A stretch of DNA of 64,000 nucleotides from Chloroflexota bacterium (GTDB taxonomy: Bacteria > Chloroflexota > Chloroflexia > Chloroflexales > Herpetosiphonaceae), in NCBI GenBank assembly GCA_020161265.1, contig JAIUOC010000002.1, forward strand, positions 248,001-312,000, in the 5' to 3' direction. The stretch's first letter is position 1, and the number at the start of each line of letters is the position of its first letter. A model generated the notes under the pieces. The model did no database searches. It saw only the letters and a program-made list of their open reading frames with translations, and had not been told where the DNA came from. Both the position numbers and the translations under genes were made by a program. Positions 46,979 to 61,857 of the stretch are shown piece by piece.

Positions 46979-47590
46979 CTATAGTACCTTAAGTGCTGCC
47001 AGTTGGTGCAAATCATCCAAGCGATTGAGATTATGTAAATGTTGATACCATGGGCTAGTGCTGGCAATTGGCCAAATTTGGGGCTGGAATTGCTCAATCA
47101 GTTGGGTTAATCGATAGTGCCCAGCGGCCAAGGCTTGCTCAAAGTGGGGCAAGCACGCCCGTTGATAGAGCGCACACAATGGTTCCCAACCACCCTGCTG
47201 TTGCGAATCGGCTTGGCGTTGCGGCACGACTGCCAAGCCATGGCGTGGCTGAGCTATTAATTCGTGCAGCAATTCAGTTGAGAGCAAAGGCAAATCGGCG
47301 GCTAGTACCAACGTCCATTCAGTGGCAAGCAGGCCCATGCCCGCTACAATTCCGGCTAGTGGTCCAGCATCAGGTACAGCATCTTGAAGCAATGGAACAC
47401 TTAATTCAAGCCACTCAGCCGAATCGTTTAAGCTTATGATAACTTGATCGCATACTGTTTGAGCAACTGCCAGTGTGTATTCGAGCAAGGTTGGGCCATG
47501 CTCGCCCCACAAACGCAGGCGGCGTTTATCACTGCCAAAACGCCGCGCCTTGCCACCAGCAATAATCAAACAACCAAGCTCAGCCATCAT
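46979..47590 (-). CDS. mobA: Molybdenum cofactor guanylyltransferase
   Basis: Attaches GMP to molybdopterin to form the MGD cofactor. The nucleotide-binding start CLIIAGGKARRFGSDKRRL, the DAVPDAGPLAGIVAGM loop and the metal Asp in VLAADLPLLS are the MobA signatures. Length 203 residues. Two start codons (47590, 47587) both fit; the first overlaps the stop of the CHAT gene as ATGA. No other molybdopterin gene is nearby, so this location beside a CHAT protein and a glycosyltransferase looks incidental or newly assembled. Confidence 0.9.
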   Translation of the reverse strand: MMAELGCLIIAGGKARRFGSDKRRLRLWGEHGPTLLEYTLAVAQTVCDQVIISLNDSAEWLELSVPLLQDAVPDAGPLAGIVAGMGLLATEWTLVLAADLPLLSTELLHELIAQPRHGLAVVPQRQADSQQQGGWEPLCALYQRACLPHFEQALAAGHYRLTQLIEQFQPQIWPIASTSPWYQHLHNLNRLDDLHQLAALKVL

Positions 47591-49092
47591 TTGCTCAATT
47601 CAGCAATGCGCTTTTGAATTTCTGTAATATCTTGGAGCAAGCCATCGCGTTGATTTAAGAGATTAATCGGCTTATTGATACCATGGCGTTGCAGTTCCAG
47701 CTCCGTTTCATGGAGAGTGCGCTGCTTCAGAGCCAATAGTTCACGGGCATTCGCCAGCGCCTGTTGCTGATCATTGGCTGAATGTGGAGTATTTGGCTGA
47801 GTAGTGCCATGATTGGTCGTTGTTTGATTCAAATCACCAGCAACCACATTACCGAAAGAGAAATTACCGCCACTAAAGGTGTTGCCACTGCCCATGAAAT
47901 TATTAATACTGTTGCCACTTGTAGGTGGTGTTGCGGGCGGAGCGGTTTCGACAGCCGGAGCAGTGGTGGGAGTTACCACCTGATTGCTTGGCGCTAGAGG
48001 ATTGGGAATATTGAACAGCACGCCATCATCAGCCCGCATATAGAGCGTTGCCAAGCCCCAATCAAGCTGGCCAAAGCCATAGGCAATAATCGATTTGCGC
48101 CCTTCAGCAACACAGGCATCAATTGGCGTTCCTGTTGCGAGTACCCGATAAAATTCTTCAGCAAAAGCCTTGCCTGCTGTATCTAAAATTGATGATTGCA
48201 TGGCGACAACCGCTGGAATATTGGCCGCCATCAGGGCTGGAGCAATCCCACGCAGCAAGGCAGTTGAGGAAACCGTGCTAGTTTTACAAGCATTCAACAC
48301 CACCAAGCGTACCGAGGTATTGCGCAAGAGCGTTGCTAATGTGCGAGCAGTTGAAAGATGTTTTTTGCCATTGCCATCATCGAGAATTAATGCCCCGGTT
48401 GTGCCTTGGAAATCGCCATGACCGACATAATGCAAAATATGTGGTCGCCATTCACGCACAAGCCGCTGGAGTTTGGGCGCAGTTAATTGAGTTTCTTCAA
48501 TAATTTCAACTTGATTTTGGGTAACCAACGGCTCTAACGATCGATGAATCGCCGCTAATTCGCCTTGAATATCGACTGGATGGGTGCTCGCCATTTCAGC
48601 TGGCAAGGATCCTACTAAGGCGATCCGTAATTTTTCTTGGCCCAAACTCAAGACTGGCACCGATTCAGGGAAGCTCAAAAATCGACAGATTGAATGATCG
48701 GTTGCCAGGGGAATTCCCGCACTGTCGCAGGCAAACTCCCATGGAATGGTGGCAACTGTCGCTAAAGCAGGGTTGTTGGCATCAATATTGAGTTTAATTC
48801 GCAATGATTGACCTTGAGCGCGAGCTGTCTCACGGGCTGCCGTAAATAACGCCCAAATTTTGCCTTTTAGTAATGTTTCGTAGAGCACAATTCCAAAATC
48901 AATCACCTGATCTTCAGTCAGCGGGGTGTTATAGTCCAAGGATGTTTGAAACGCTTGATAGCGTGGATCATCAACGGGCAAAATCAGGCTATCGCTATCT
49001 TGCATGCCTTTGGCAGTGCGCCCATGCACCACAAAACTATTTTCAGCATCTTTTGGGTTGATCGTTAATTCAAAGTCGGCATAGCTACTCAT
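47587..49092 (-). CDS. CHAT-domain caspase-like protein with Gly/Asn-rich linker and coiled coil
   Basis: A 501-residue protein with an N-terminal beta-rich region (1-110), a CHAT peptidase domain (about 135-370) and a C-terminal tail. The catalytic dyad is His225 (HYVGHGDF) and Cys269 (LNACKTS), in the typical spacing for clan CD CHAT enzymes. After a Pro/Thr linker comes a Gly/Asn repeat region (NNFMGSGNTFSGGNFSFGN, then VVAGDLNQ) and a coiled coil to the end (ARELLALKQRTLHETELELQ). CHAT proteases act in bacterial conflict systems and regulated proteolysis; no NLR or gasdermin partner is adjacent. ATG 49092 is chosen, with GGAG ten bases upstream. The gene is coupled to mobA. Confidence 0.82.
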   Translation of the reverse strand: MSSYADFELTINPKDAENSFVVHGRTAKGMQDSDSLILPVDDPRYQAFQTSLDYNTPLTEDQVIDFGIVLYETLLKGKIWALFTAARETARAQGQSLRIKLNIDANNPALATVATIPWEFACDSAGIPLATDHSICRFLSFPESVPVLSLGQEKLRIALVGSLPAEMASTHPVDIQGELAAIHRSLEPLVTQNQVEIIEETQLTAPKLQRLVREWRPHILHYVGHGDFQGTTGALILDDGNGKKHLSTARTLATLLRNTSVRLVVLNACKTSTVSSTALLRGIAPALMAANIPAVVAMQSSILDTAGKAFAEEFYRVLATGTPIDACVAEGRKSIIAYGFGQLDWGLATLYMRADDGVLFNIPNPLAPSNQVVTPTTAPAVETAPPATPPTSGNSINNFMGSGNTFSGGNFSFGNVVAGDLNQTTTNHGTTQPNTPHSANDQQQALANARELLALKQRTLHETELELQRHGINKPINLLNQRDGLLQDITEIQKRIAELSK

Positions 49093-49271
49093 ACGCAACA
49101 ACTCCATAGCGCTACAGTGCGAAACTAGCAGCATCATACACTTAAAGGGCTTGTTGGGGCAAGAGTGGGCTGAGCCATTAAAACCATCAAAGAATTAGTT
49201 GTTTTTTGCGGTTAGTAGCAGCATCGGCAAGCACATGGCGTTTATGGTTTGGCACAATTGCTTAAATAATA

Positions 49272-54515: not shown

Positions 54516-55073
54516 CTAGTAATCTTGCCAGAGTAACGTAGGTTTATTTTCCCAATTATTGCAAGATACTTGCAAAATCCGAATTGCGTCAGCGCTTGAA
54601 CCTTGCGATGGTTGCAAACATAAATTACTTTTCACCGATACGATGGAGTAGCTAGAACCCTTATATTTAAAGATCCAGCGCTGATTATTACCGCTATGAC
54701 AGCCCCATTGAACTATCCGTGCACCAACTGCATCTGAATCGTTGTAAATATCAAGGCATTTGCCAATTTGGCCGCTATAAGTTTTGATTTGAAAGGTATC
54801 ATAACCATTATGTGTGCCACCATCATACACAAAATCAAATTGTTCGTTAGCATCATTGTTACATGGCCATTGAATAATATCGGCACCATTATTTTGTGAG
54901 CCGCCATAAACATTCATACACTTTCCCGTGCCATTATTACGAATGCGAGAAACAAAAGCTTTATCAGGTGCTGATTTATCGCGTGATTGAGCGAGGCTGG
55001 AGGAACTGCCAATATGGTTAAAAATTGTGAGCAACATTCCGAGCAGTAACCATCCATACATCCGTTTGTTCAT
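54516..55073 (-). CDS. Secreted ricin-type beta-trefoil lectin protein
   Basis: A 185-residue exported protein. A signal peptide (YGWLLLGMLLTIFNHIGSSSSLAQ) is followed by a single ricin B / CBM13 beta-trefoil (about 40-185). The three repeats carry GKCMNVYGGSQNNGADIIQWPC, GKCLDIYNDSDAVGARIVQWGC...NQRWIF and NLCLQPSQGSSADAIRILQVSC; the QxW motif is clear in the second. It should bind a sugar ligand outside the cell. It has no catalytic domain. It lies downstream of a duplicated promoter block and the first LuxR-like gene. Its leader is about 190 bases long and contains a start-stop element. Confidence 0.85.
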   Translation of the reverse strand: MNKRMYGWLLLGMLLTIFNHIGSSSSLAQSRDKSAPDKAFVSRIRNNGTGKCMNVYGGSQNNGADIIQWPCNNDANEQFDFVYDGGTHNGYDTFQIKTYSGQIGKCLDIYNDSDAVGARIVQWGCHSGNNQRWIFKYKGSSYSIVSVKSNLCLQPSQGSSADAIRILQVSCNNWENKPTLLWQDY

Positions 55074-55222: not shown

Positions 55223-55246
55223 TTACATTTCCAAGCTCCTTTACCT
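55223..55246 (-). other. Start-stop element (ATG-TAA) with strong Shine-Dalgarno
   Basis: On the minus strand AGGTAAAGGAG is followed seven bases later by ATG directly followed by TAA. The Shine-Dalgarno region aligns with that of the C39-peptidase gene in the second cassette copy, where the ATG opens a real gene. It is either a relic of a replaced gene start or a minimal regulatory uORF. Confidence 0.55.
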
Positions 55247-55265
55247 AATTTAAAGCTCGATCTGA

Positions 55266-55347
55266 TTGAGCAGAGTATAGTGATTGCGCTATAATTGCGC
55301 TGCTAGGATCTCCTAGCGTTCGACGGTGTATGCTAGGAATCCCGAGC
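55266..55347. promoter_or_regulatory. Cassette copy 1: 52-bp conserved block and two operator-like inverted repeats
   Basis: Positions 55266-55317 match 60043-60094 base for base. The block holds TTGAGC, 18-base spacer, TATAAT (plus strand), a minus-strand TATACT (55274-55279), a direct repeat ATTGCGCT at 55283 and 55294 (11-base period), and the inverted repeat GCTAGGATCTCCTAGC at 55302-55317. A second, imperfect copy GCTAGGAATCCCGAGC lies at 55332-55347, 30 bases centre to centre, overlapping the end of the LuxR-like gene. Confidence 0.65.
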
Positions 55348-55557
55348 ATGCTGCGTAGGTTCAATTGCTAGATAGGCAAGAGTGGCACTAACCCGATTAT
55401 CAACGTTGAGTTTGCTATAGATCCGATGCAGGCTGGTTTCGATCGAGCCTTCCGTCATGTGCAGCATATGGGCAATCACTTTGTTGGTTTTGCCTTGAAT
55501 CAGGATTTGCATAATCCGATGTTCGCTGGCGGTAAGTTGGGAAGTAGGTTTTTGCAT
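55333..55557 (-). CDS. Small LuxR-type HTH protein (copy 1)
   Basis: A 74-residue protein that is almost only a LuxR/GerE helix-turn-helix: SQLTASEHRIMQILIQGKTNKVIAHMLHMTEGSIETSLHRIYSKLNVDNRVSAT. It has no receiver or ligand domain. Its twin at 60110 differs at five residues only. The two operator-like inverted repeats of the cassette begin just beyond its stop codon, so autoregulation or control of the downstream secreted-protein gene is plausible. It is divergent from the FHA-winged-helix gene; the gap between them holds an inverted repeat (55626-55645). Confidence 0.85.
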   Translation of the reverse strand: MQKPTSQLTASEHRIMQILIQGKTNKVIAHMLHMTEGSIETSLHRIYSKLNVDNRVSATLAYLAIEPTQHARDS

Positions 55558-55625
55558 AGACGCTCCCTGTGATCTAGTTGATCTGAATGTGCTTTATCGT
55601 ACCCAACACCAGCTTGAAGATCCAT

Positions 55626-55645: not shown

Positions 55646-55684
55646 CTAAAGGTTTTTTAAGTTGCTTGTCGAGGTAACTTGTTT

Positions 55685-56335
55685 ATGATTCATACCACAA
55701 TGGCCTTGGCCAAACTACTTGCCACCGATAGTGTTATTACGCCGCAAAGCTATTTTTTACTTGATCAACCGTGTACACTAGGCCGAATGGTTGATAACAC
55801 AATCCATATCAATAAACGTAATGTTTCACGTTATCATGCTGAAATTTATTTCACCAATGATTGTTTTTGGCTCATCGATCGTGGCAGTCGTAATGGTACA
55901 TTCGTCAATGATTATCAAATCTCAAATGAGCAAGCTTATTGCTTACAAAATAACGATTTTATTGGATTTGGCAATAATCGACGGTTATTAGTATTCATCT
56001 GTGATAATGCCACTACTGAGCTAGAGCATGGTACTGAGTATAATCTCTTATTTATACAAAAAACCATGCAATTTTATTTAAACCAAAACCCCATACCGAT
56101 TCGTACAGGAACAATGAAATTCAAATTATTTAAACATCTTTACGATCATCGTGGGCAGATTTGTTCGCTCGAATCATGTATTTTGGCCTATCAACCGCCT
56201 AATTATCGCTATGACCCAAGCCTGGATAACCCTAACCTACATACTCATATGAGCCAATTACGAATGCTATTAGCAGATATTTATCCTGCTGAGATGATCG
56301 TAACCTATCCAAACCTTGGCTATAAGTTAGTATAA
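55685..56335 (+). CDS. FHA-domain regulator with C-terminal winged helix
   Basis: A 216-residue protein. The FHA domain (about 10-110) has the phosphothreonine pocket CTLGRMVDNTIHI, VSRYHAEI and DRGSRNGTFVND. The C-terminal 75 residues (MKFKLFKHLYDHRGQICSLESCI ... MIVTYPNLGYKLV) match an OmpR/PhoB-type winged helix, including the last hairpin motif with GYKL. This gives a pThr-reading DNA-binding protein. ATG 55685 has GAGG ten bases upstream; the TTG at 55679 is too close. The Ser/Thr kinase gene follows after 11 bases, so kinase and reader are cotranscribed. Confidence 0.85.
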   Translation: MIHTTMALAKLLATDSVITPQSYFLLDQPCTLGRMVDNTIHINKRNVSRYHAEIYFTNDCFWLIDRGSRNGTFVNDYQISNEQAYCLQNNDFIGFGNNRRLLVFICDNATTELEHGTEYNLLFIQKTMQFYLNQNPIPIRTGTMKFKLFKHLYDHRGQICSLESCILAYQPPNYRYDPSLDNPNLHTHMSQLRMLLADIYPAEMIVTYPNLGYKLV

Positions 56336-56346
56336 ATGGTGAGCCT

Positions 56347-58104
56347 ATGCAGGAATTAACGATCTTTGCGAAATCGAGTTTGATTCAACAACGCTATGAA
56401 GTCTATGAGATCATTGGGCGAGGTGGCTCAGGAGTTGTTTATAAAGCGCTTGATACAACGATTCGTCGTTGGGTTGCGATTAAGCAAATCGTGCGTGAGG
56501 ACGGAGATTATCGACGCTTTGTTCAAGAAACCCGTATTTTAGGTGGGCTTAATCATACAGGGTTGCCAGATGTCTATGATTGTTTTGTTGAACAAGCAAT
56601 GTTCTTTTTGGTGATGGAATTAATCGAAGGCGATACATTAGCTGATTTAATCGCTCGTCGGGCAACTTCTGCTACACTAGTACAAGTTTTGGAATGGGCT
56701 AAAAATTTAGGAGCGATTGTAGCATATTTACACAATCAAAATCCCTCAATCATTCATCGAGATATTAAACCGCAAAATATTAAAATAACTGCAAGCGGTA
56801 GTTTGATACTTTTGGATTTTGGGTTGGCCCAAGGATCAGCTCAAGTTACGGCTAATTCAACCCTTGATGAAGCAGCAACTGGATTTAGCCCCAACTATGC
56901 GGCCTTGGAGCAGCGCAATGGCAATCCGGTTAATCAGCGTAGCGATGTATATGCTGTTGCCGCAACCTTATATTATGCCCTAACTGGATACGCACCATGC
57001 GATTCGCTTGAACGAGCAGTGGCAATTGCTGCTGGTTTACCTGACCCGTTGATTGAATTAACCACCCATCGCCCAGAATTGCCTGTTCAGATCTTTCAAA
57101 CACTCCATAAGGCACTCACTTTGAATCCAGATCTGCGGCATCCCACAATTACCGATTTTATTCAGCAATTGTTGAGCGCTGATTCAGTTCAAGCCCTAAA
57201 TCGACGTTGGGTAAATCGGTTAGCTATTGGTTTAGCTAGCCTGATTGGGTTAGTTTTGCTGGCTTATCAAACTGGGCTTGCGACTTATGGGCTACAGCCA
57301 ACTCAGCTACCACAACCAAATGAATTAAGTCAATTACCAAGCTCAACAAGCCAATCAACACCTACCCGTAGCGATTTATGGGCCTTAGAAGCGCCACAAC
57401 CAACGCTTGTACCCACAATTTTACCAATTAGCCAATTGATTGACCCTGCTATTCTTCAAGCCGAAGCCGAACAACTCCGAGCTGAAGCAGCCTTGTGGAC
57501 ACCAATTTTTACTGATACGTTTGATCTCAATCGCCATAGTTGGCCTTTGACCACGACAATCGATGATTATGCCAATAGTACGCTCTCGATTAAGGATGGC
57601 AAACTTATTTTTGATGTAACCTCGATCACCCCAAGCGGCGCAACAGTTTGGGATCTCCACCGAACTATGCCCTATGTTGAAGATTTCGTAATCTCAGTTG
57701 ATATTACTTGTGCGGTTTGTGAACCTTCAACCGAGCCAGGTTTATTGTTTCGCGAGAGCGGTTTGCTCAATGCTGAAACGTATTATTTTTTACGGTATGG
57801 TATCAACCAACGAGTTCGAATTGCCAAGCAACTACCAGATAAAGCAGTCCGGGTGGCATGGGATGTTGCTTCGGTGATCGATACACGTAAGAATCTAACC
57901 AATCATCTTGAATTGATTGTCAAGGGTGATCATATGGCAGTCTTTATTAATAATCAATATGCCTTGAAACTTGAAGATAGTAGCTTTTCTTCTGGCTACC
58001 CGCATATTTTTGTTTGGGTCGATGGGGCCACAACCGAGCAAGTTACCTTTGATAATCTGTATCTCGCAGTGCCACAAGATCAAGTCAATCGGACAAAACG
58101 TTAA
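56347..58104 (+). CDS. Membrane Ser/Thr protein kinase with extracytoplasmic beta-sandwich
   Basis: A 585-residue Hanks-type kinase. The kinase domain (about 17-270) has the Gly loop IGRGGSGVVYKA, Lys46 (VAIK), catalytic HRDIKPQN with Asp139 and DFG Asp157; the activation segment has FSPNYAALEQ. One transmembrane helix (about 290-312, RLAIGLASLIGLVLLAYQTG) and a Pro/Ser/Thr linker separate it from a C-terminal beta-sandwich (about 395-575) of the LamG/DUF1080 type (FTDTFDLNRHSW, LIVKGDHMAVFINNQYAL, VTFDNLYLAVP). This part should be extracytoplasmic and may bind a glycan. The second gene of the FHA operon. Confidence 0.88.
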   Translation: MQELTIFAKSSLIQQRYEVYEIIGRGGSGVVYKALDTTIRRWVAIKQIVREDGDYRRFVQETRILGGLNHTGLPDVYDCFVEQAMFFLVMELIEGDTLADLIARRATSATLVQVLEWAKNLGAIVAYLHNQNPSIIHRDIKPQNIKITASGSLILLDFGLAQGSAQVTANSTLDEAATGFSPNYAALEQRNGNPVNQRSDVYAVAATLYYALTGYAPCDSLERAVAIAAGLPDPLIELTTHRPELPVQIFQTLHKALTLNPDLRHPTITDFIQQLLSADSVQALNRRWVNRLAIGLASLIGLVLLAYQTGLATYGLQPTQLPQPNELSQLPSSTSQSTPTRSDLWALEAPQPTLVPTILPISQLIDPAILQAEAEQLRAEAALWTPIFTDTFDLNRHSWPLTTTIDDYANSTLSIKDGKLIFDVTSITPSGATVWDLHRTMPYVEDFVISVDITCAVCEPSTEPGLLFRESGLLNAETYYFLRYGINQRVRIAKQLPDKAVRVAWDVASVIDTRKNLTNHLELIVKGDHMAVFINNQYALKLEDSSFSSGYPHIFVWVDGATTEQVTFDNLYLAVPQDQVNRTKR

Positions 58105-58222: not shown

Positions 58223-60004
58223 CTATTGTTGGTGAATTACCAATGGCAAATAGACCAGTTTTTCATCAATCGTATCGGGAGCCGATGGCAAACTGACTTG
58301 GATAATACCTGAAACATTGTTGCTGCTATCGCGGAAGCGTGCATAGTAGGTATCAGCGATTGGCATACTCACATACTGACTAAAAGGTTGCCAGACATCG
58401 CTTGCTTGTTGGTTCGTCCAAAGTTGCATTTCAGCGATTGAGCCTGCATTGCTACTAGCAGCTAGCTCCAAAAACATTTCAGTTTCGGTATTGCTGAATA
58501 ATGTGATGCTGCCAGTGATAACCTCAGTTTGGCTAGCTTGAATTGTTGCTGGAGCTGGGGCAGCTGGCTCAATTACAGGTTCTGCATTCAGCGAACCATT
58601 GCGTCGATAAATTCGCATACCACTTGGTGAGCCACGAAACCATGCTAATGTGCGACTAAGAGTGGTGCGTACACCATTTTTGATTCCAGGATCATTCACC
58701 ATATAATTAGCTGGATTCGTCCCGCTTCCTCCAAGTACCACGATGAAGTGCGTTGAATTAGCGTTGCTTAATTCTACGATGACTGGCCCTTGACGCAGCT
58801 CTTGTTCCAAACGAGCATAACTAAAGCTATTGATTCGTTGGACAAAGCGTACTTTATTATTGCTACAAGGCAGAATTTTAAAGCTGCCCCAATTCATACC
58901 ACAGGCATGATCGCCAAGGCAACTATTGAGGGTGCCTGGATTTTTATCTGCACCATAAAACTGAAAGACCATGGCAACCGAAGTTAATGCACAGCCTACA
59001 TTACCAATGGTATTGTTACATGCTCCAATCCGATTATTCTTCCAAGCTGGATCGGCTTGCCAGAAAAAGGGCACATTCCATGGTGGGTTTGGGCTTGGAG
59101 GTGGCGGCGGTGGCGGGGTTGGTGGGGGACTTGGTGCAGCCAATGAAATATAGATTCGGCGTTGAATATTGTGCCATGAATTACTGATTGTGCTGTGGTA
59201 GCGAATGTGCAGGGTTGCAGCACCAACCGGAAGGGCACGAATATTGATGCTTGCCAGAAAGCCTGTGTTGCGAAAACGCATATCGCCATAAGCATCTTGC
59301 ACATCTTGGCGTGGCTGTCCCGTTGAAACCGCATTGATTAAGCTATTGTTTAGGCGAACTTCGATTGCATCAACGCCTGAAGTTCCGTTAATCGATCCAA
59401 GATCACCTGCCCACCCACGAAGATTGATTTGGCCAAAAACAACCTGATTTTCAAGTGGCTCGTTAATATCACCGACAGGGACTGAAACTGCGGCTGGTTG
59501 GGCAGGGCTACAACTGCCAACCCCAATTCCGGTAATCCGACAATCGGTACGAGCGGCTCGTTGCATAAATGCTTCTTCGCTGAGAATCCCATCATTAGCA
59601 GTTGCATAAATTCTAAAAACTTCTCCAGTATTGGCTTGAGCATTGATAACAACCCGCCACCAACCGCTGGCATTTGGCGTACAACCACCACTGCTTCCAG
59701 CCCGATGGAATAATTCGCTGCGCCAATTGTTGACACTTTCTGAGCGAAATTGAAAATTCGGCGAATCGGCACAAATTCGTAAACCAATGGTCGTTTTGCC
59801 ATTTTCAGCAATAAAAAATATTGGAAGACTATGAACGGTCGATTCGGGTTGGGTGGTATCAATGCTTGTCGTGATAGCGATTGGCTCGGTGGCCCGAGCC
59901 ATATGGCTGCCCCAAAAAAGGCTTTGCAACACGATCAAGCAAGTCATTAAACACTGGCTAAGGCGCAACCATCGATAACGGGGGCTTACTCGGTTATGCT
60001 TCAT
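58223..60004 (-). CDS. Secreted C39-like peptidase with LP tail
   Basis: A 593-residue exported protein. After a signal peptide (LSQCLMTCLIVLQSLFWGSHMA) comes an N-terminal beta-rich region and an Ig-like part (GQINLRGWAGDLGS, VDAIEVRLN), then a poly-Pro linker (about 292-306). The C39_2 peptidase domain follows (about 310-470): VPFFWQADPAWKNN, Cys338 in GCALTSVAMVF and His419 in STHFIVVLGG. The C-terminal part is another beta domain, ending LVYLPLVIHQQ. The ATG has AAAGGAGG just before it and lies 39 bases past the duplicated cassette block, so a promoter there may serve it. Substrate unknown. Confidence 0.85.
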   Translation of the reverse strand: MKHNRVSPRYRWLRLSQCLMTCLIVLQSLFWGSHMARATEPIAITTSIDTTQPESTVHSLPIFFIAENGKTTIGLRICADSPNFQFRSESVNNWRSELFHRAGSSGGCTPNASGWWRVVINAQANTGEVFRIYATANDGILSEEAFMQRAARTDCRITGIGVGSCSPAQPAAVSVPVGDINEPLENQVVFGQINLRGWAGDLGSINGTSGVDAIEVRLNNSLINAVSTGQPRQDVQDAYGDMRFRNTGFLASINIRALPVGAATLHIRYHSTISNSWHNIQRRIYISLAAPSPPPTPPPPPPPSPNPPWNVPFFWQADPAWKNNRIGACNNTIGNVGCALTSVAMVFQFYGADKNPGTLNSCLGDHACGMNWGSFKILPCSNNKVRFVQRINSFSYARLEQELRQGPVIVELSNANSTHFIVVLGGSGTNPANYMVNDPGIKNGVRTTLSRTLAWFRGSPSGMRIYRRNGSLNAEPVIEPAAPAPATIQASQTEVITGSITLFSNTETEMFLELAASSNAGSIAEMQLWTNQQASDVWQPFSQYVSMPIADTYYARFRDSSNNVSGIIQVSLPSAPDTIDEKLVYLPLVIHQQ

Positions 60005-60042
60005 CGGCGGCCTCCTTTTACCTCATTTAACATGTTTGTGGA

Positions 60043-60124
60043 TTGAGCAGAGTATAGTGATTGCGCTATAATTGCGCTGCTAGGATCTCCTAGCTTTAGC
60101 TGATCCATGCTAGGAATCCCTAGC
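60043..60124. promoter_or_regulatory. Cassette copy 2: 52-bp conserved block and two operator-like inverted repeats
   Basis: The same 52 bases as in copy 1 occupy 60043-60094. The inverted repeat GCTAGGATCTCCTAGC is at 60079-60094 and a second, perfect GCTAGGAATCCCTAGC at 60109-60124, centres 30 bases apart and inside a longer palindrome (CCATGCTAGG / CCTAGCATGG). The minus-strand TATACT at 60051-60056 would start transcription about 40 bases before the peptidase ATG. The plus-strand TATAAT at 60067-60072 reads across the LuxR-like gene. Confidence 0.65.
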
Positions 60125-60334
60125 ATGGTTATTGGGTTCAATTGCTAGATAGGCAAGAGTAGCACTAACCCGATTATCAACATTGAGTTTGCTATAGATC
60201 CGATGCAGACTGGTTTCGATCGAGCCTTCCGTCATGTGCAGCATGTGGGCAATCACTTTATTGGTTTTGCCTTGAATCAGGATTTGCATAATCCGATGTT
60301 CGCTGGCAGTAAGTTGGGATAGTGGCGTTGGCAT
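60110..60334 (-). CDS. Small LuxR-type HTH protein (copy 2)
   Basis: The 74-residue twin of the protein at 55333: 69 of 74 residues are identical, with changes at positions 2, 3 and 5 and two near the C-terminus (EPNNHARDS instead of EPTQHARDS). The many synonymous changes are few transitions, so the duplication is recent. It has only the LuxR/GerE HTH. Its own promoter would lie in the 110-base gap before LuxR-like gene 3. Downstream on the minus strand is the C39 peptidase gene, so HTH and exported enzyme could be cotranscribed or the HTH could act on the block between them. Confidence 0.85.
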   Translation of the reverse strand: MPTPLSQLTASEHRIMQILIQGKTNKVIAHMLHMTEGSIETSLHRIYSKLNVDNRVSATLAYLAIEPNNHARDS

Positions 60335-60437
60335 AACTACTCCATATCTAGCCTATTCCAATCAAAATATTTGAAATGGCTACTACATCGCTCGGTCTTG
60401 GGATATTGCTATGATAAGCAATGATCGCGGTAGCCAC

Positions 60438-60459
60438 ATCGCTAATTTTAGCGATTTTT
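60438..60459 (+). terminator. Plus-strand terminator over the end of LuxR-like gene 3
   Basis: Stem ATCGCT / AGCGAT, loop AATTTT, then TTTT. It is oriented for the plus strand, where no gene ends. It could end an antisense transcript from the plus-strand promoter at 60043-60072. Confidence 0.5.
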
Positions 60460-60669
60460 GGCTGTTGTTGTTTGTTGGAATGTTGATAATCTGCGGGCCG
60501 CATGCGCCGCTTGTTGGCGCGATTTCACCCCTAGCTTGCTAGCACTACTACGCAGATGGGTGCGAACTGTCCAGATCGAAATTGATAGGCGCTCAGCAAT
60601 CTCAGCATCACTCCAGCCCTGATCAACTAATGCCAAAACATCGTATTCACGGGCGCTCAGCTTATGCAT
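60448..60669 (-). CDS. Small LuxR-type HTH protein 3
   Basis: A 73-residue protein, again only a GerE-type HTH: KLSAREYDVLALVDQGWSDAEIAERLSISIWTVRTHLRSSASKLGVKSRQQAAHAA. It is clearly distinct from the other two (different recognition helix IWTVRTHL). It lies about 110 bases upstream of LuxR copy 2 on the same strand, making a run of two small regulators before the peptidase gene. A GGAGAC Shine-Dalgarno precedes the ATG. Its targets are unknown. Confidence 0.82.
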   Translation of the reverse strand: MHKLSAREYDVLALVDQGWSDAEIAERLSISIWTVRTHLRSSASKLGVKSRQQAAHAARRLSTFQQTTTAKNR

Positions 60670-60870
60670 ACGCGAGGTCTCCTTATATCAATTGAGCCTT
60701 CTGAATGGTCTAAAGCCAGATGCTGCGCAGCACAAGAACTTGTTGGAATGACTGTAACAGTAGCGGGGTTGTACGAGTTATATTTTTTTAGCACTCAGCT
60801 ATAACTTTGAGCTTTAATCACAATCTGGATGGTTTTTTGGATGCAATCCTATGGATTTGTTGGGGGAACC

Positions 60871-61857
60871 ATGGATCATCGCTATCAAGCCTATACCTTC
60901 GCTGAATTGCTTCGGCTGTTCTTTGAGCGAAGCCGTGAGGAACAGATAAACCAGAATCTGCTAGCCCAAAAAGTTGGTGTAGCAGTGCCAACCTTAAGCA
61001 ACTGGTTTAACGGCAAATACACACCGCGCTTTAAAGATCAAGTCTTGCGGCTCGCGCAAGCACTTGGGCTAACCGCTTTAGAGGCAGATTTATTGCTTTG
61101 TTCGGTCAAGAATGCTTGGAATACCTACGGCACGCCGCATGATGTACTGCAGAAATACACAATTGTGCGCTATCGCGAAGAATTGCTCTCAAGTCGCCAC
61201 AGTGCCAGCACCGACGATATTTCGTTAGCGACGGTACAAGCCACATGGCAACTTTATTTTTATGATCTATTTGTGGGCAATAATCAACATTGGGGGTTAG
61301 GCTATAAAGATGATGGGGTATGTCGAGTTGAACGAACGATCACCGATGGAGCTTATCAACTTACCTTACACAACCGCTTTCATAATGATGTTTTTATCGG
61401 TGGCGATTCCCATTGTTTTGCACCACCGATTTATTATCTCAGTGTTTACGCGAAACGCTGCTCGGGCGGAAGTGAAAATGATGGCTTTGCGCTCATTTTT
61501 GAGGAAATGAGCGATGCTAGCCATGCAATTTTCCGAATCCGCGACCAGCCCCAATTGGCATCGGTGATCAGCACGCGCAATGGTGGCGACAGCTTCCAAA
61601 TCCATCTTGATCGAAAACATGTTGCAACAATTCGTCCAGGCGAGATCAACCAATTAGGCATGTTGGTGATTCATAATCAGCATCGTTTTTTTGTCAATAA
61701 TGTTTGGATTGGCTCAGCCGAAATTGAGCGTATTCCTCATAGTCGGCTTGATGTTGGCATTATTAGCCAATCGATGGTTCCAGTTGTTTGTACCTTCCAA
61801 GATTTTCGGGTCTATATTCCGCCCAATATCTATGAACAACCCGAAATACTAGCTTAG
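60871..61857 (+). CDS. HTH regulator fused to a LamG-like beta-sandwich
   Basis: A protein of about 328 residues. The N-terminal part (5-80) is a Cro/CI-type HTH: NQNLLAQKVGVAVPTLSNWFNGKYTPRFKDQVLRLAQALG. Residues about 125-325 are a beta-sandwich like that of the kinase at 56347: LGMLVIHNQHRFFVNNVWIG corresponds to LELIVKGDHMAVFINNQYAL, and CTFQDFRVYIPP to VTFDNLYLAVP. It has no membrane segment, so it is a cytoplasmic regulator that may bind the same kind of ligand. Of three ATGs (60829, 60841, 60871) the last has GGGGGA upstream. Divergent from LuxR-like gene 3. Confidence 0.78.
   Translation: MDHRYQAYTFAELLRLFFERSREEQINQNLLAQKVGVAVPTLSNWFNGKYTPRFKDQVLRLAQALGLTALEADLLLCSVKNAWNTYGTPHDVLQKYTIVRYREELLSSRHSASTDDISLATVQATWQLYFYDLFVGNNQHWGLGYKDDGVCRVERTITDGAYQLTLHNRFHNDVFIGGDSHCFAPPIYYLSVYAKRCSGGSENDGFALIFEEMSDASHAIFRIRDQPQLASVISTRNGGDSFQIHLDRKHVATIRPGEINQLGMLVIHNQHRFFVNNVWIGSAEIERIPHSRLDVGIISQSMVPVVCTFQDFRVYIPPNIYEQPEILA

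What the first reader, a model, noticed from the sequence alone, without database searches (positions are those of the whole stretch)
55266..55347. Identical 52-bp non-coding block with paired GCTAGG/CCTAGC repeats, copy 1
The block matches copy 2 at 60043-60094 in every base, and a second repeat of the same half-site lies 30 bases away, near three helical turns. The spacing is exactly conserved while the sequence between differs, which argues for cooperative binding by a dimeric regulator. The obvious candidates are the two near-identical LuxR-like proteins encoded next to each copy.
Basis: partly seen in the sequence, partly recalled or inferred. Interest (0 to 1): 0.75.

Follow-up and report, generated by a model that had tools for sequence, protein, structure and literature searches.

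The report
Dedicated switch guarding swappable lytic-enzyme genes
The repeated DNA block looks like the on-switch of a small regulator-plus-promoter unit in predatory Herpetosiphon bacteria, kept nearly unchanged between species while the secreted wall-cutting or sugar-binding protein gene behind it is exchanged for another; the regulation itself is inferred and not yet tested.

Summary
The block is real and sits in a 295-bp unit found twice in this Herpetosiphon genome. The unit holds a 74-aa GerE/LuxR-type HTH gene. The outer dyad overlaps that gene's last codons and stop; the inner dyad lies 22 nt from an invariant TATACT. Inferred centres are -42.5 and -72.5, a layout like NarL at ogt. Over seven cargo-bearing copies from six species, the stretch from inner dyad to TGCTCAA is conserved (42/52 invariant against 36/123 reference sites, p=5e-10). 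The paired pattern occurs only at this locus in five of six genomes; the sixth misses it by one base. So it is a local switch, not a regulon.

The larger finding: the gene behind the switch differs between species (C39-like peptidase, ricin-type lectin, CHAP or M23 protein). Homology ends just past the promoter and resumes inside or just after the cargo gene. A second slot, and less clearly a third, behave alike. All 12 XRE genes of one family found in six genomes lie beside a solo GerE HTH. An overlapping opposite-strand promoter is a serious rival for part of the conservation.

The parts
55302..55317 (-). inner dyad (B), copy 1; inferred centre -42.5 for the lectin promoter
   Evidence: position inferred from TATACT, start site not mapped
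55332..55347 (-). outer dyad (A), copy 1; overlaps last codons and stop of the HTH gene; one half-site altered
55274..55279 (-). TATACT, proposed -10 element of the cargo promoter, copy 1; invariant in 7 of 7 cargo-bearing copies, lost in 2 of 2 cargo-less copies
   Evidence: not found by the consensus scan because it has no -35 match
55266..55295 (+). opposite-strand sigma70-like promoter TTGAGC-18-TATAAT (rival or additional feature)
   Evidence: 1 found, 1.2 expected by chance; conservation read
55333..55557 (-). 74-aa solo GerE/LuxR-type HTH gene, copy 1
   Evidence: PF00196, 50 bits, cut-off 23.5
54516..55073 (-). cargo of copy 1: 185-aa ricin-type beta-trefoil lectin with hydrophobic N-terminus
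60079..60094 (-). inner dyad (B), copy 2
60109..60124 (-). outer dyad (A), copy 2; overlaps last codons and stop of the HTH gene
60051..60056 (-). TATACT, proposed -10 element, copy 2
60110..60334 (-). 74-aa solo GerE/LuxR-type HTH gene, copy 2
58223..60004 (-). cargo of copy 2: 593-aa C39-like peptidase with hydrophobic N-terminus
   Evidence: (PF13529, 32.8 bits, cut-off 24)
60448..60669 (-). 73-aa second solo GerE HTH (LuxR73) upstream of copy 2
60829..61857 (+). XRE-type HTH regulator (342 aa), divergent from the solo HTH genes; family partner of solo GerE HTHs in the genus
55679..56335 (+). FHA + winged-helix (Trans_reg_C, below cut-off) protein, divergent from HTH copy 1
56347..58104 (+). 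Ser/Thr protein kinase following the FHA gene

Best explanation
The block is the operator and core promoter of a self-contained regulatory unit. The solo GerE-type HTH protein binds the two dyads as dimers at about -42.5 and -72.5 and recruits RNA polymerase to a promoter that has a good -10 (TATACT) but no -35, so as to switch on the next gene. In each copy that gene encodes a secreted cell-wall-active or sugar-binding protein. The regulator-promoter unit stays; the cargo behind it is replaced by homologous recombination, with the unit itself as the upstream homology arm and a shared C-terminal repeat domain or the 3' neighbour as the downstream arm. Shown: the anatomy, the conservation between species, absence of other paired sites, the cargo differences, and the breakpoints. 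Inferred: binding, activation, cooperativity, start site, secretion, a role in predation, and the recombination route.
For: Conservation: inner dyad to TGCTCAA 42/52 invariant against 36/123 reference sites over 7 copies, p=5e-10; dyads 0.91 mean identity, spacer 0.57, leader 0.58, third codon positions 0.65. Natural test: the 2 copies with no cargo (H. geysericola, H. llansteffanensis F-type) lack the outer dyad and TATACT, the 7 with cargo keep both. Exclusive pairing: the paired pattern in 6 genomes gives 11 rows, all at this locus, control 0. Cargo exchange: H. geysericola (M23) and H. giganteus (lectin) are 90.0% identical over 2055 bp up to 68 nt past the anchor, then 91.9% over 1307 bp from 79/112 nt after the cargo stops; geysericola M23 and llansteffanensis CHAP differ in the N-terminal domain but share the C-terminal part within an 89.6% block. 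Sites: 5' flank 191 clade / 7 allele / 8 third; C-terminal region switches from allele to clade, with 27 clade / 0 allele / 6 third after column 149. Second slot: own C39-like against H. aurantiacus M23, flanks 93.1% over 1420 bp and 95.4% over 826 bp. Recombination at the unit inside this genome: upstream of HTH copy 1 is F-type (77% over 256 nt), while its HTH groups with copy 2 (support 92/95). Precedent: NarL at ogt, two 7-2-7 sites at -44.5 and -77.5 (PMC7419079, abstract and passages).
Against: No binding or transcription data. The consensus scan does not find the proposed cargo promoter (no -35) and does find one on the opposite strand. Conservation of TGCTCA after the -10, kept also in cargo-less copies, is not explained by an activator-dependent cargo promoter alone. 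No second regulated site exists in trans. Cargo is not the only variable part of the neighbourhood: the kinase-FHA-HTH block, the 463-aa gene and the 3' neighbour in H. aurantiacus also differ. Fourfold identities of the cargo alleles between clades (0.49-0.57) equal those of flanks (0.44-0.57), so the alleles are old and an ancestral multi-cassette array with loss fits as well as exchange. One genome per species was seen.
Confidence: 0.7

Rival explanations
1. Face-to-face promoters: the stretch also, or mainly, holds a promoter on the opposite strand (TTGAGC-18-TATAAT) that starts at the inner dyad and runs antisense through the HTH gene towards the FHA-kinase genes (copy 1) or the XRE gene (copy 2). 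The HTH protein on the inner dyad would repress that transcript while activating the cargo.
For: 10 of 12 consensus match on the + strand at 55266-55295. Read from the alignment: TTGAGC in 7 of 7 cargo-bearing copies, TATAAT in 6 of 7 (TATACT in H. aurantiacus), TATAAT in both cargo-less copies (with GTGAGC), and the inner dyad kept in all 9. It accounts for the conservation beyond the cargo -10.
Against: One such match is what chance gives in this region (1.2 expected). Alone it explains neither the outer dyad nor TATACT and their loss in cargo-less copies. The genes it would reach are about 380 to 760 nt away and differ between copies.
Confidence: 0.3
2. The dyads are bound by another regulator (LuxR73 or the XRE protein), and the 74-aa HTH protein acts elsewhere or is only co-inherited.
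For: LuxR73 and the XRE gene also lie at the slot in P-type copies; XRE-family genes are found beside solo HTHs in 12 of 12 cases.
Against: Own copy 1 has neither LuxR73 nor an XRE gene directly beside it, yet has both dyads. Slots 2 and 3 have XRE relatives but a different or no evident dyad. The related HTH next to a luciferase-like gene has the same CTAG-N6-CTAG layout.
Confidence: 0.18
3. The dyads act in RNA as hairpins (terminator, attenuator or processing site) between HTH gene and cargo.
For: Each dyad could form a 6-bp stem with a 4-nt loop.
Against: No terminator-like site in the region; 12 pairs over 7 sequences show 0 compensated changes and 4 one-sided breaks, though this test has little power because most pairs never vary; the inner dyad keeps a fixed 22-nt distance to TATACT.
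Confidence: 0.05
4. The 52-bp identity is only a recent duplication or gene conversion, without constraint.
For: The run of identity between the two copies is not significant (P=0.10); own HTH copies agree at 27/31 fourfold sites, more than with any other species.
Against: The same stretch is conserved over six species well above spacer, leader and third codon positions.
Confidence: 0.03

Closest known systems
E. coli NarL-activated ogt promoter (two 7-2-7 sites at -44.5 and -77.5; PMC7419079, abstract and passages seen)
   Same: GerE-type DNA-binding domain; two inverted repeats of 7-2-7 form; inner site abutting where -35 would be; about three helical turns between sites
   Different: The Herpetosiphon protein is a 74-aa solo HTH without receiver domain; different half-site (GCTAGGA against the NarL consensus); sites 29-30 bp apart, not 33; the regulator gene lies directly upstream and its 3' end is part of the operator
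GerE and other stand-alone GerE-domain regulators (GerE structure 1fse listed)
   Same: Length about 74 aa, GerE fold only, no sensor domain
   Different: E=0.00068 only; here one copy per target gene, locally dedicated
Loci with constant regulator or secretion part and exchangeable effector modules (polymorphic toxins, modular bacteriolysins and endolysins; recalled)
   Same: Catalytic domains exchanged against constant flanks; C-terminal repeat domain shared between M23 and CHAP cargo
   Different: No immunity gene seen between cargo and PatB; the constant part is a regulator plus promoter; whole cargo genes also exchanged; three slots in one genus
Variable hydrolase repertoire of Herpetosiphon (PMC6210107, section 17 and passages read)
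   Same: The authors report considerable variability in hydrolase genes between H. aurantiacus, H. geysericola and H. llansteffanense and link it to patchy prey range
   Different: In the passages seen they describe no locus, promoter or exchange mechanism

Membership tests
GerE/LuxR-type HTH (PF00196) | match above the curated cut-off | tested here: met
   copy 1 protein 50 bits, cut-off 23.5; both copies over cut-off
NarL-type response regulator | receiver domain in the same protein | tested here: not met
   74-aa ORF; only the GerE region matches; NarL model 37.2 bits against a cut-off of 250
NarL-like tandem-site class II promoter (works like) | two 7-2-7 dyads, inner one centred near -42 to -44 | tested here: inconclusive
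   dyads and distances present, start site not mapped, no -35 match
NarL-like tandem-site class II promoter (works like) | binding and activation by the HTH protein | not testable with these tools
   needs gel shift, footprint and reporter assays
Quorum-sensing LuxR solo | autoinducer-binding domain | tested here: not met
   no such domain in the 74-aa protein
Mobile repeat | many dispersed copies | tested here: not met
   2 copies in the 6.04-Mb genome; promoter stretch only at this locus with E below 1e-8 in 6 genomes
Regulon of dispersed operators | further paired sites upstream of other genes | tested here: not met
Polymorphic toxin locus | adjacent immunity gene | tested here: not met
   no ORF of 65 aa or more between cargo and PatB in the five species with PatB downstream; smaller ORFs not examined
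Site-specific cassette or inversion system | recombinase gene at the locus | tested here: not met
   none among the neighbours scanned with Pfam; not every ORF was scanned

The most novel reading that the evidence does not exclude
Herpetosiphon carries a family of guarded weapon slots: XRE regulator, solo GerE HTH, dedicated operator-promoter, and one interchangeable secreted lytic or glycan-binding protein. Species swap whole cargo genes or only catalytic domains by recombination between the regulator-promoter unit and a shared 3' part, which keeps any new enzyme under the same control and lets related predators hold different, mutually exclusive alleles that may set prey range.
Probability: 0.4. 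Interest if true: 0.78.

Novelty: new variant of a known kind. Interest (0 to 1): 0.62.

Why it matters
Herpetosiphon prey range is broad but patchy, and the published explanation offered is hydrolase variability (PMC6210107, section 17). This locus gives a concrete, testable place where that variability arises and the control region that new enzymes inherit. It also gives a simple one-protein, one-promoter module to test how a solo GerE domain activates transcription, with two natural cargo-less copies as built-in controls.

Tried and rejected
Regulon in trans: rejected for this dyad. 12 sites with up to 2 mismatches in the own genome, 4 of them here, against 11 for the control; the only other 1-mismatch site lies in an adenylate kinase gene.

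Mobile repeat: rejected.

RNA hairpin or terminator: unlikely, with little power.

Structure of the M23 cargo: the AlphaFold2 model from two sequences had mean pLDDT 33 and was not used; no fold search was run.

Glycan-sensor idea for the XRE protein and the kinase C-terminus: no support. Pfam gives only HTH families for the XRE protein; the kinase C-terminus matches 3keto-disac_hyd at E=0.09, below cut-off; the two did not match each other.

Recent horizontal transfer of cargo between clades: not supported; fourfold identities are as low as in the flanks.

Literature: seven searches with Herpetosiphon, promoter, LuxR, domain-exchange or GerE terms listed no paper that by title or abstract describes this locus; subscription journals are mostly not in the library. 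PMC3368417 was seen in passages only.

Correction of my own notebook: entry 4 says the second slot-2 element in G003 lies about 230 nt on; one search shows 146 nt.

Full report
What was checked. The finding is real. The window belongs to a Herpetosiphon genome: five same-genus genomes share the locus, and the named records are H. aurantiacus, H. giganteus, H. geysericola and H. llansteffanensis; G003 is unnamed. The block at 55266-55347 lies inside a 295-bp unit present at 55264-55558 and 60041-60335, 91% identical, with only these two copies in the 6.04-Mb genome. Four dyad matches occur in the window against 0.02 expected.

Anatomy, read on the minus strand. A 74-aa ORF with a GerE domain (PF00196, 50 bits, cut-off 23.5) ends in the outer dyad, GCTAGGGATTCCTAGC in copy 2, whose CCTAG contains the TAG stop. 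Thirty base pairs on (centre to centre) lies the inner dyad GCTAGGAGATCCTAGC, then 22 nt, then TATACT. If TATACT is the -10 element the dyads are centred at -42.5 and -72.5. No -35 match is present. A leader with a ribosome-binding-like AAGGAG follows, then the cargo gene.

Conservation. Seven cargo-bearing copies (own two, H. aurantiacus, G003, H. giganteus, H. geysericola, H. llansteffanensis) were aligned. From inner dyad to TGCTCAA, 42 of 52 columns are invariant against 36 of 123 reference columns (third codon positions, spacer between the dyads, leader), p=5e-10. Both dyads have mean identity 0.91, the spacer 0.57, the leader 0.58. The identical run between the two own copies alone is not significant (P=0.10). 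Spacing is 30 bp in four copies and 29 in three. Two further copies, in H. geysericola and H. llansteffanensis next to the FHA gene (F-type), have no same-strand ORF of 65 aa or more before the next gene. They lack the outer dyad and TATACT but keep the inner dyad, AATTATA and TGCTCA.

No regulon. In the own genome 12 sites match with up to two mismatches, 4 of them here, against 11 for the reversed pattern. The one other site with a single mismatch lies in an adenylate kinase gene. The paired pattern in six genomes gives 11 rows, all at this locus, control 0; H. giganteus is missed because of one base. A search with the 89-bp promoter stretch finds the nine copies at E below 1e-8 and otherwise only matches with E above 0.03.

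The cargo changes. By Pfam the gene behind the promoter encodes a C39-like peptidase (own copy 2), a ricin-type lectin (own copy 1, H. giganteus), a CHAP protein (H. aurantiacus, H. llansteffanensis) or an M23 peptidase (H. geysericola, G003). All seven have a hydrophobic N-terminus, weakest in the C39-like protein (2.12 against 2.05 in the rest of the protein); no signal-peptide predictor was run. In searches of six genomes the full-length M23 allele is found only in G003 and G004, the full-length CHAP allele only in G001 and G005, each at this locus; the other two of these four genomes in each search match only in the shared C-terminal domain, also at this locus. The close lectin allele is found in the own genome and G002; all six genomes also hold a distant relative (34-36% identity) elsewhere. 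The C39-like protein has a paralogue in the own genome and only partial relatives in G003, G004 and G005.

Breakpoints. H. geysericola (M23) and H. giganteus (lectin) are 90.0% identical over 2055 bp up to 68 nt past the CTAGCAGCGCAA anchor, and again 91.9% over 1307 bp starting 79 and 112 nt after the two cargo stops. H. geysericola (M23) and H. llansteffanensis (CHAP) break at the same point but resume inside the cargo: the C-terminal 227 aa are 84% identical while the N-terminal domains are of different families. G003 (M23) and H. aurantiacus (CHAP) show the same. Informative sites: 5' flank 191 clade, 7 allele, 8 third. In the C-terminal alignment of 708 columns 32 clade, 27 allele, 6 third: the first 16 allele sites (to column 37) include sequence upstream of the shared domain and are trivial; columns 47 to 149 give 11 allele and 5 clade; after column 149 there are 27 clade, 0 allele, 6 third. 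So the M23 and CHAP proteins are mosaics with a breakpoint in the repeat domain. Other parts of the neighbourhood also differ between species (kinase-FHA-HTH block, 463-aa gene, 3' side in H. aurantiacus).

Age. Fourfold-site identity between clades is 0.57 (M23), 0.51 (CHAP) and 0.49 (lectin), like the flanks between clades (HTH 0.44-0.56, PatB 0.54-0.57). Within clades PatB gives 0.72-0.75, the C-terminal part 0.65-0.68 and the HTH 0.55-0.77. The alleles are thus about as old as the split of the two clades. Either alleles were exchanged or kept since then, or an ancestral array of several cassettes was sorted by loss; the data do not decide.

Recombination within this genome. The 256 nt upstream of HTH copy 1 match the F-type copies (77%) and not own copy 2, whereas the HTH coding sequence of copy 1 groups with copy 2 (support 92/95, just under the tool's starred level). 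The two own HTH copies agree at 27 of 31 fourfold sites. The unit has therefore recombined, by conversion or crossover, near the HTH start codon.

The architecture recurs. The own genome has 29 GerE matches, of which 5 lie in frames under 100 aa: both copies, LuxR73, C1:651966 and C2:187066. The last two each have a gene with a hydrophobic N-terminus directly downstream. At slot 2 (C1) the own genome has a C39-like protein (PF13529 22.9 bits on the whole protein, just under the cut-off of 24; 25.9 on the 296-aa fragment), H. aurantiacus and H. giganteus have M23 plus DUF5648, and G003 has M23 with CBM_4_9 followed by a second gene. Own and H. aurantiacus are 93.1% identical over 1420 bp to about 67 nt past the HTH stop, and 95.4% over 826 bp from 50 nt after the own cargo stop. 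A different dyad, ACACG-TT-CGTGT, follows the slot-2 HTH in three of four genomes, with one substitution in G003, which also has a second, diverged copy 146 nt on. At slot 3 own and H. giganteus are 84.7% identical until about 90 nt inside the cargo; the N-terminal parts differ, the carbohydrate-binding repeats are related (67%), and the own genome has an extra 266-aa ORF. A search with the XRE protein in six genomes gave 13 rows, 12 genes if the two G002:C5 pieces are one; each has a solo GerE HTH immediately upstream and divergent. A related HTH (62-73% identity to copy 2) in four genomes stands before a luciferase-like gene, with a CTAG-N6-CTAG dyad between; that target does not change.

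How it probably works. By precedent of NarL at ogt (PMC7419079, abstract and passages), a GerE-type dimer on the inner dyad would contact RNA polymerase and a second dimer upstream would help. What raises the activity of the HTH protein is unknown; LuxR73, the XRE protein or the FHA-kinase pair are candidates by position only. Predation by excreted hydrolases is described for the genus (PMC3368417, passages; PMC6210107, section 17), and the cargo types fit such a use, but no function was tested.

Results against. The consensus scan finds no cargo promoter and one opposite-strand promoter, TTGAGC-18-TATAAT, at chance frequency (1 found, 1.2 expected). Its hexamers are nonetheless conserved (7 of 7 and 6 of 7 in cargo-bearing copies, read), so face-to-face promoters remain a serious alternative or addition. 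The RNA-hairpin test has little power. Only one genome per species was available, and draft assemblies are among them.

Verdict. Observation confirmed; interpretation partly supported; the exchange of cargo behind a constant regulator-promoter unit is the part worth following.

Noticed in passing
window 55223-55228 (-), and L029 leader: Both lectin-bearing copies have a well-spaced GGAG followed by ATG and at once a stop (ATGTAA here, ATGTAG in H. giganteus), far upstream of the lectin start; read.
   Followed up: no
L024-L027; L032-L034: A related solo HTH with a CTAG-N6-CTAG dyad stands before a luciferase-like monooxygenase gene in four Herpetosiphon genomes.
   Followed up: partly
L187 (G003 slot 2): Second, diverged copy of the slot-2 dyad element 146 nt after the first, and two tandem cargo genes; may be a scar of cassette exchange.
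   Followed up: partly
L186 3264-4064: Extra 266-aa ORF after the slot-3 cargo of the own genome, weak glucosaminidase match (20.8 bits, below cut-off 30.2), not seen at that place in H. giganteus.
   Followed up: partly
L185 (G002:C5): The XRE-family gene of H. giganteus slot 3 is split into two frames (187 and about 105-153 aa): a broken gene or a sequencing error.
   Followed up: no
window 47587-49137 (-): 516-aa CHAT-domain protein (PF12770, 86.5 bits).
   Followed up: no
window 55280-55301: Between inner dyad and TATACT lies GCGCAAT-TATA-GCGCAAT, a direct repeat at 11-bp spacing, weaker in the second clade.
   Followed up: no
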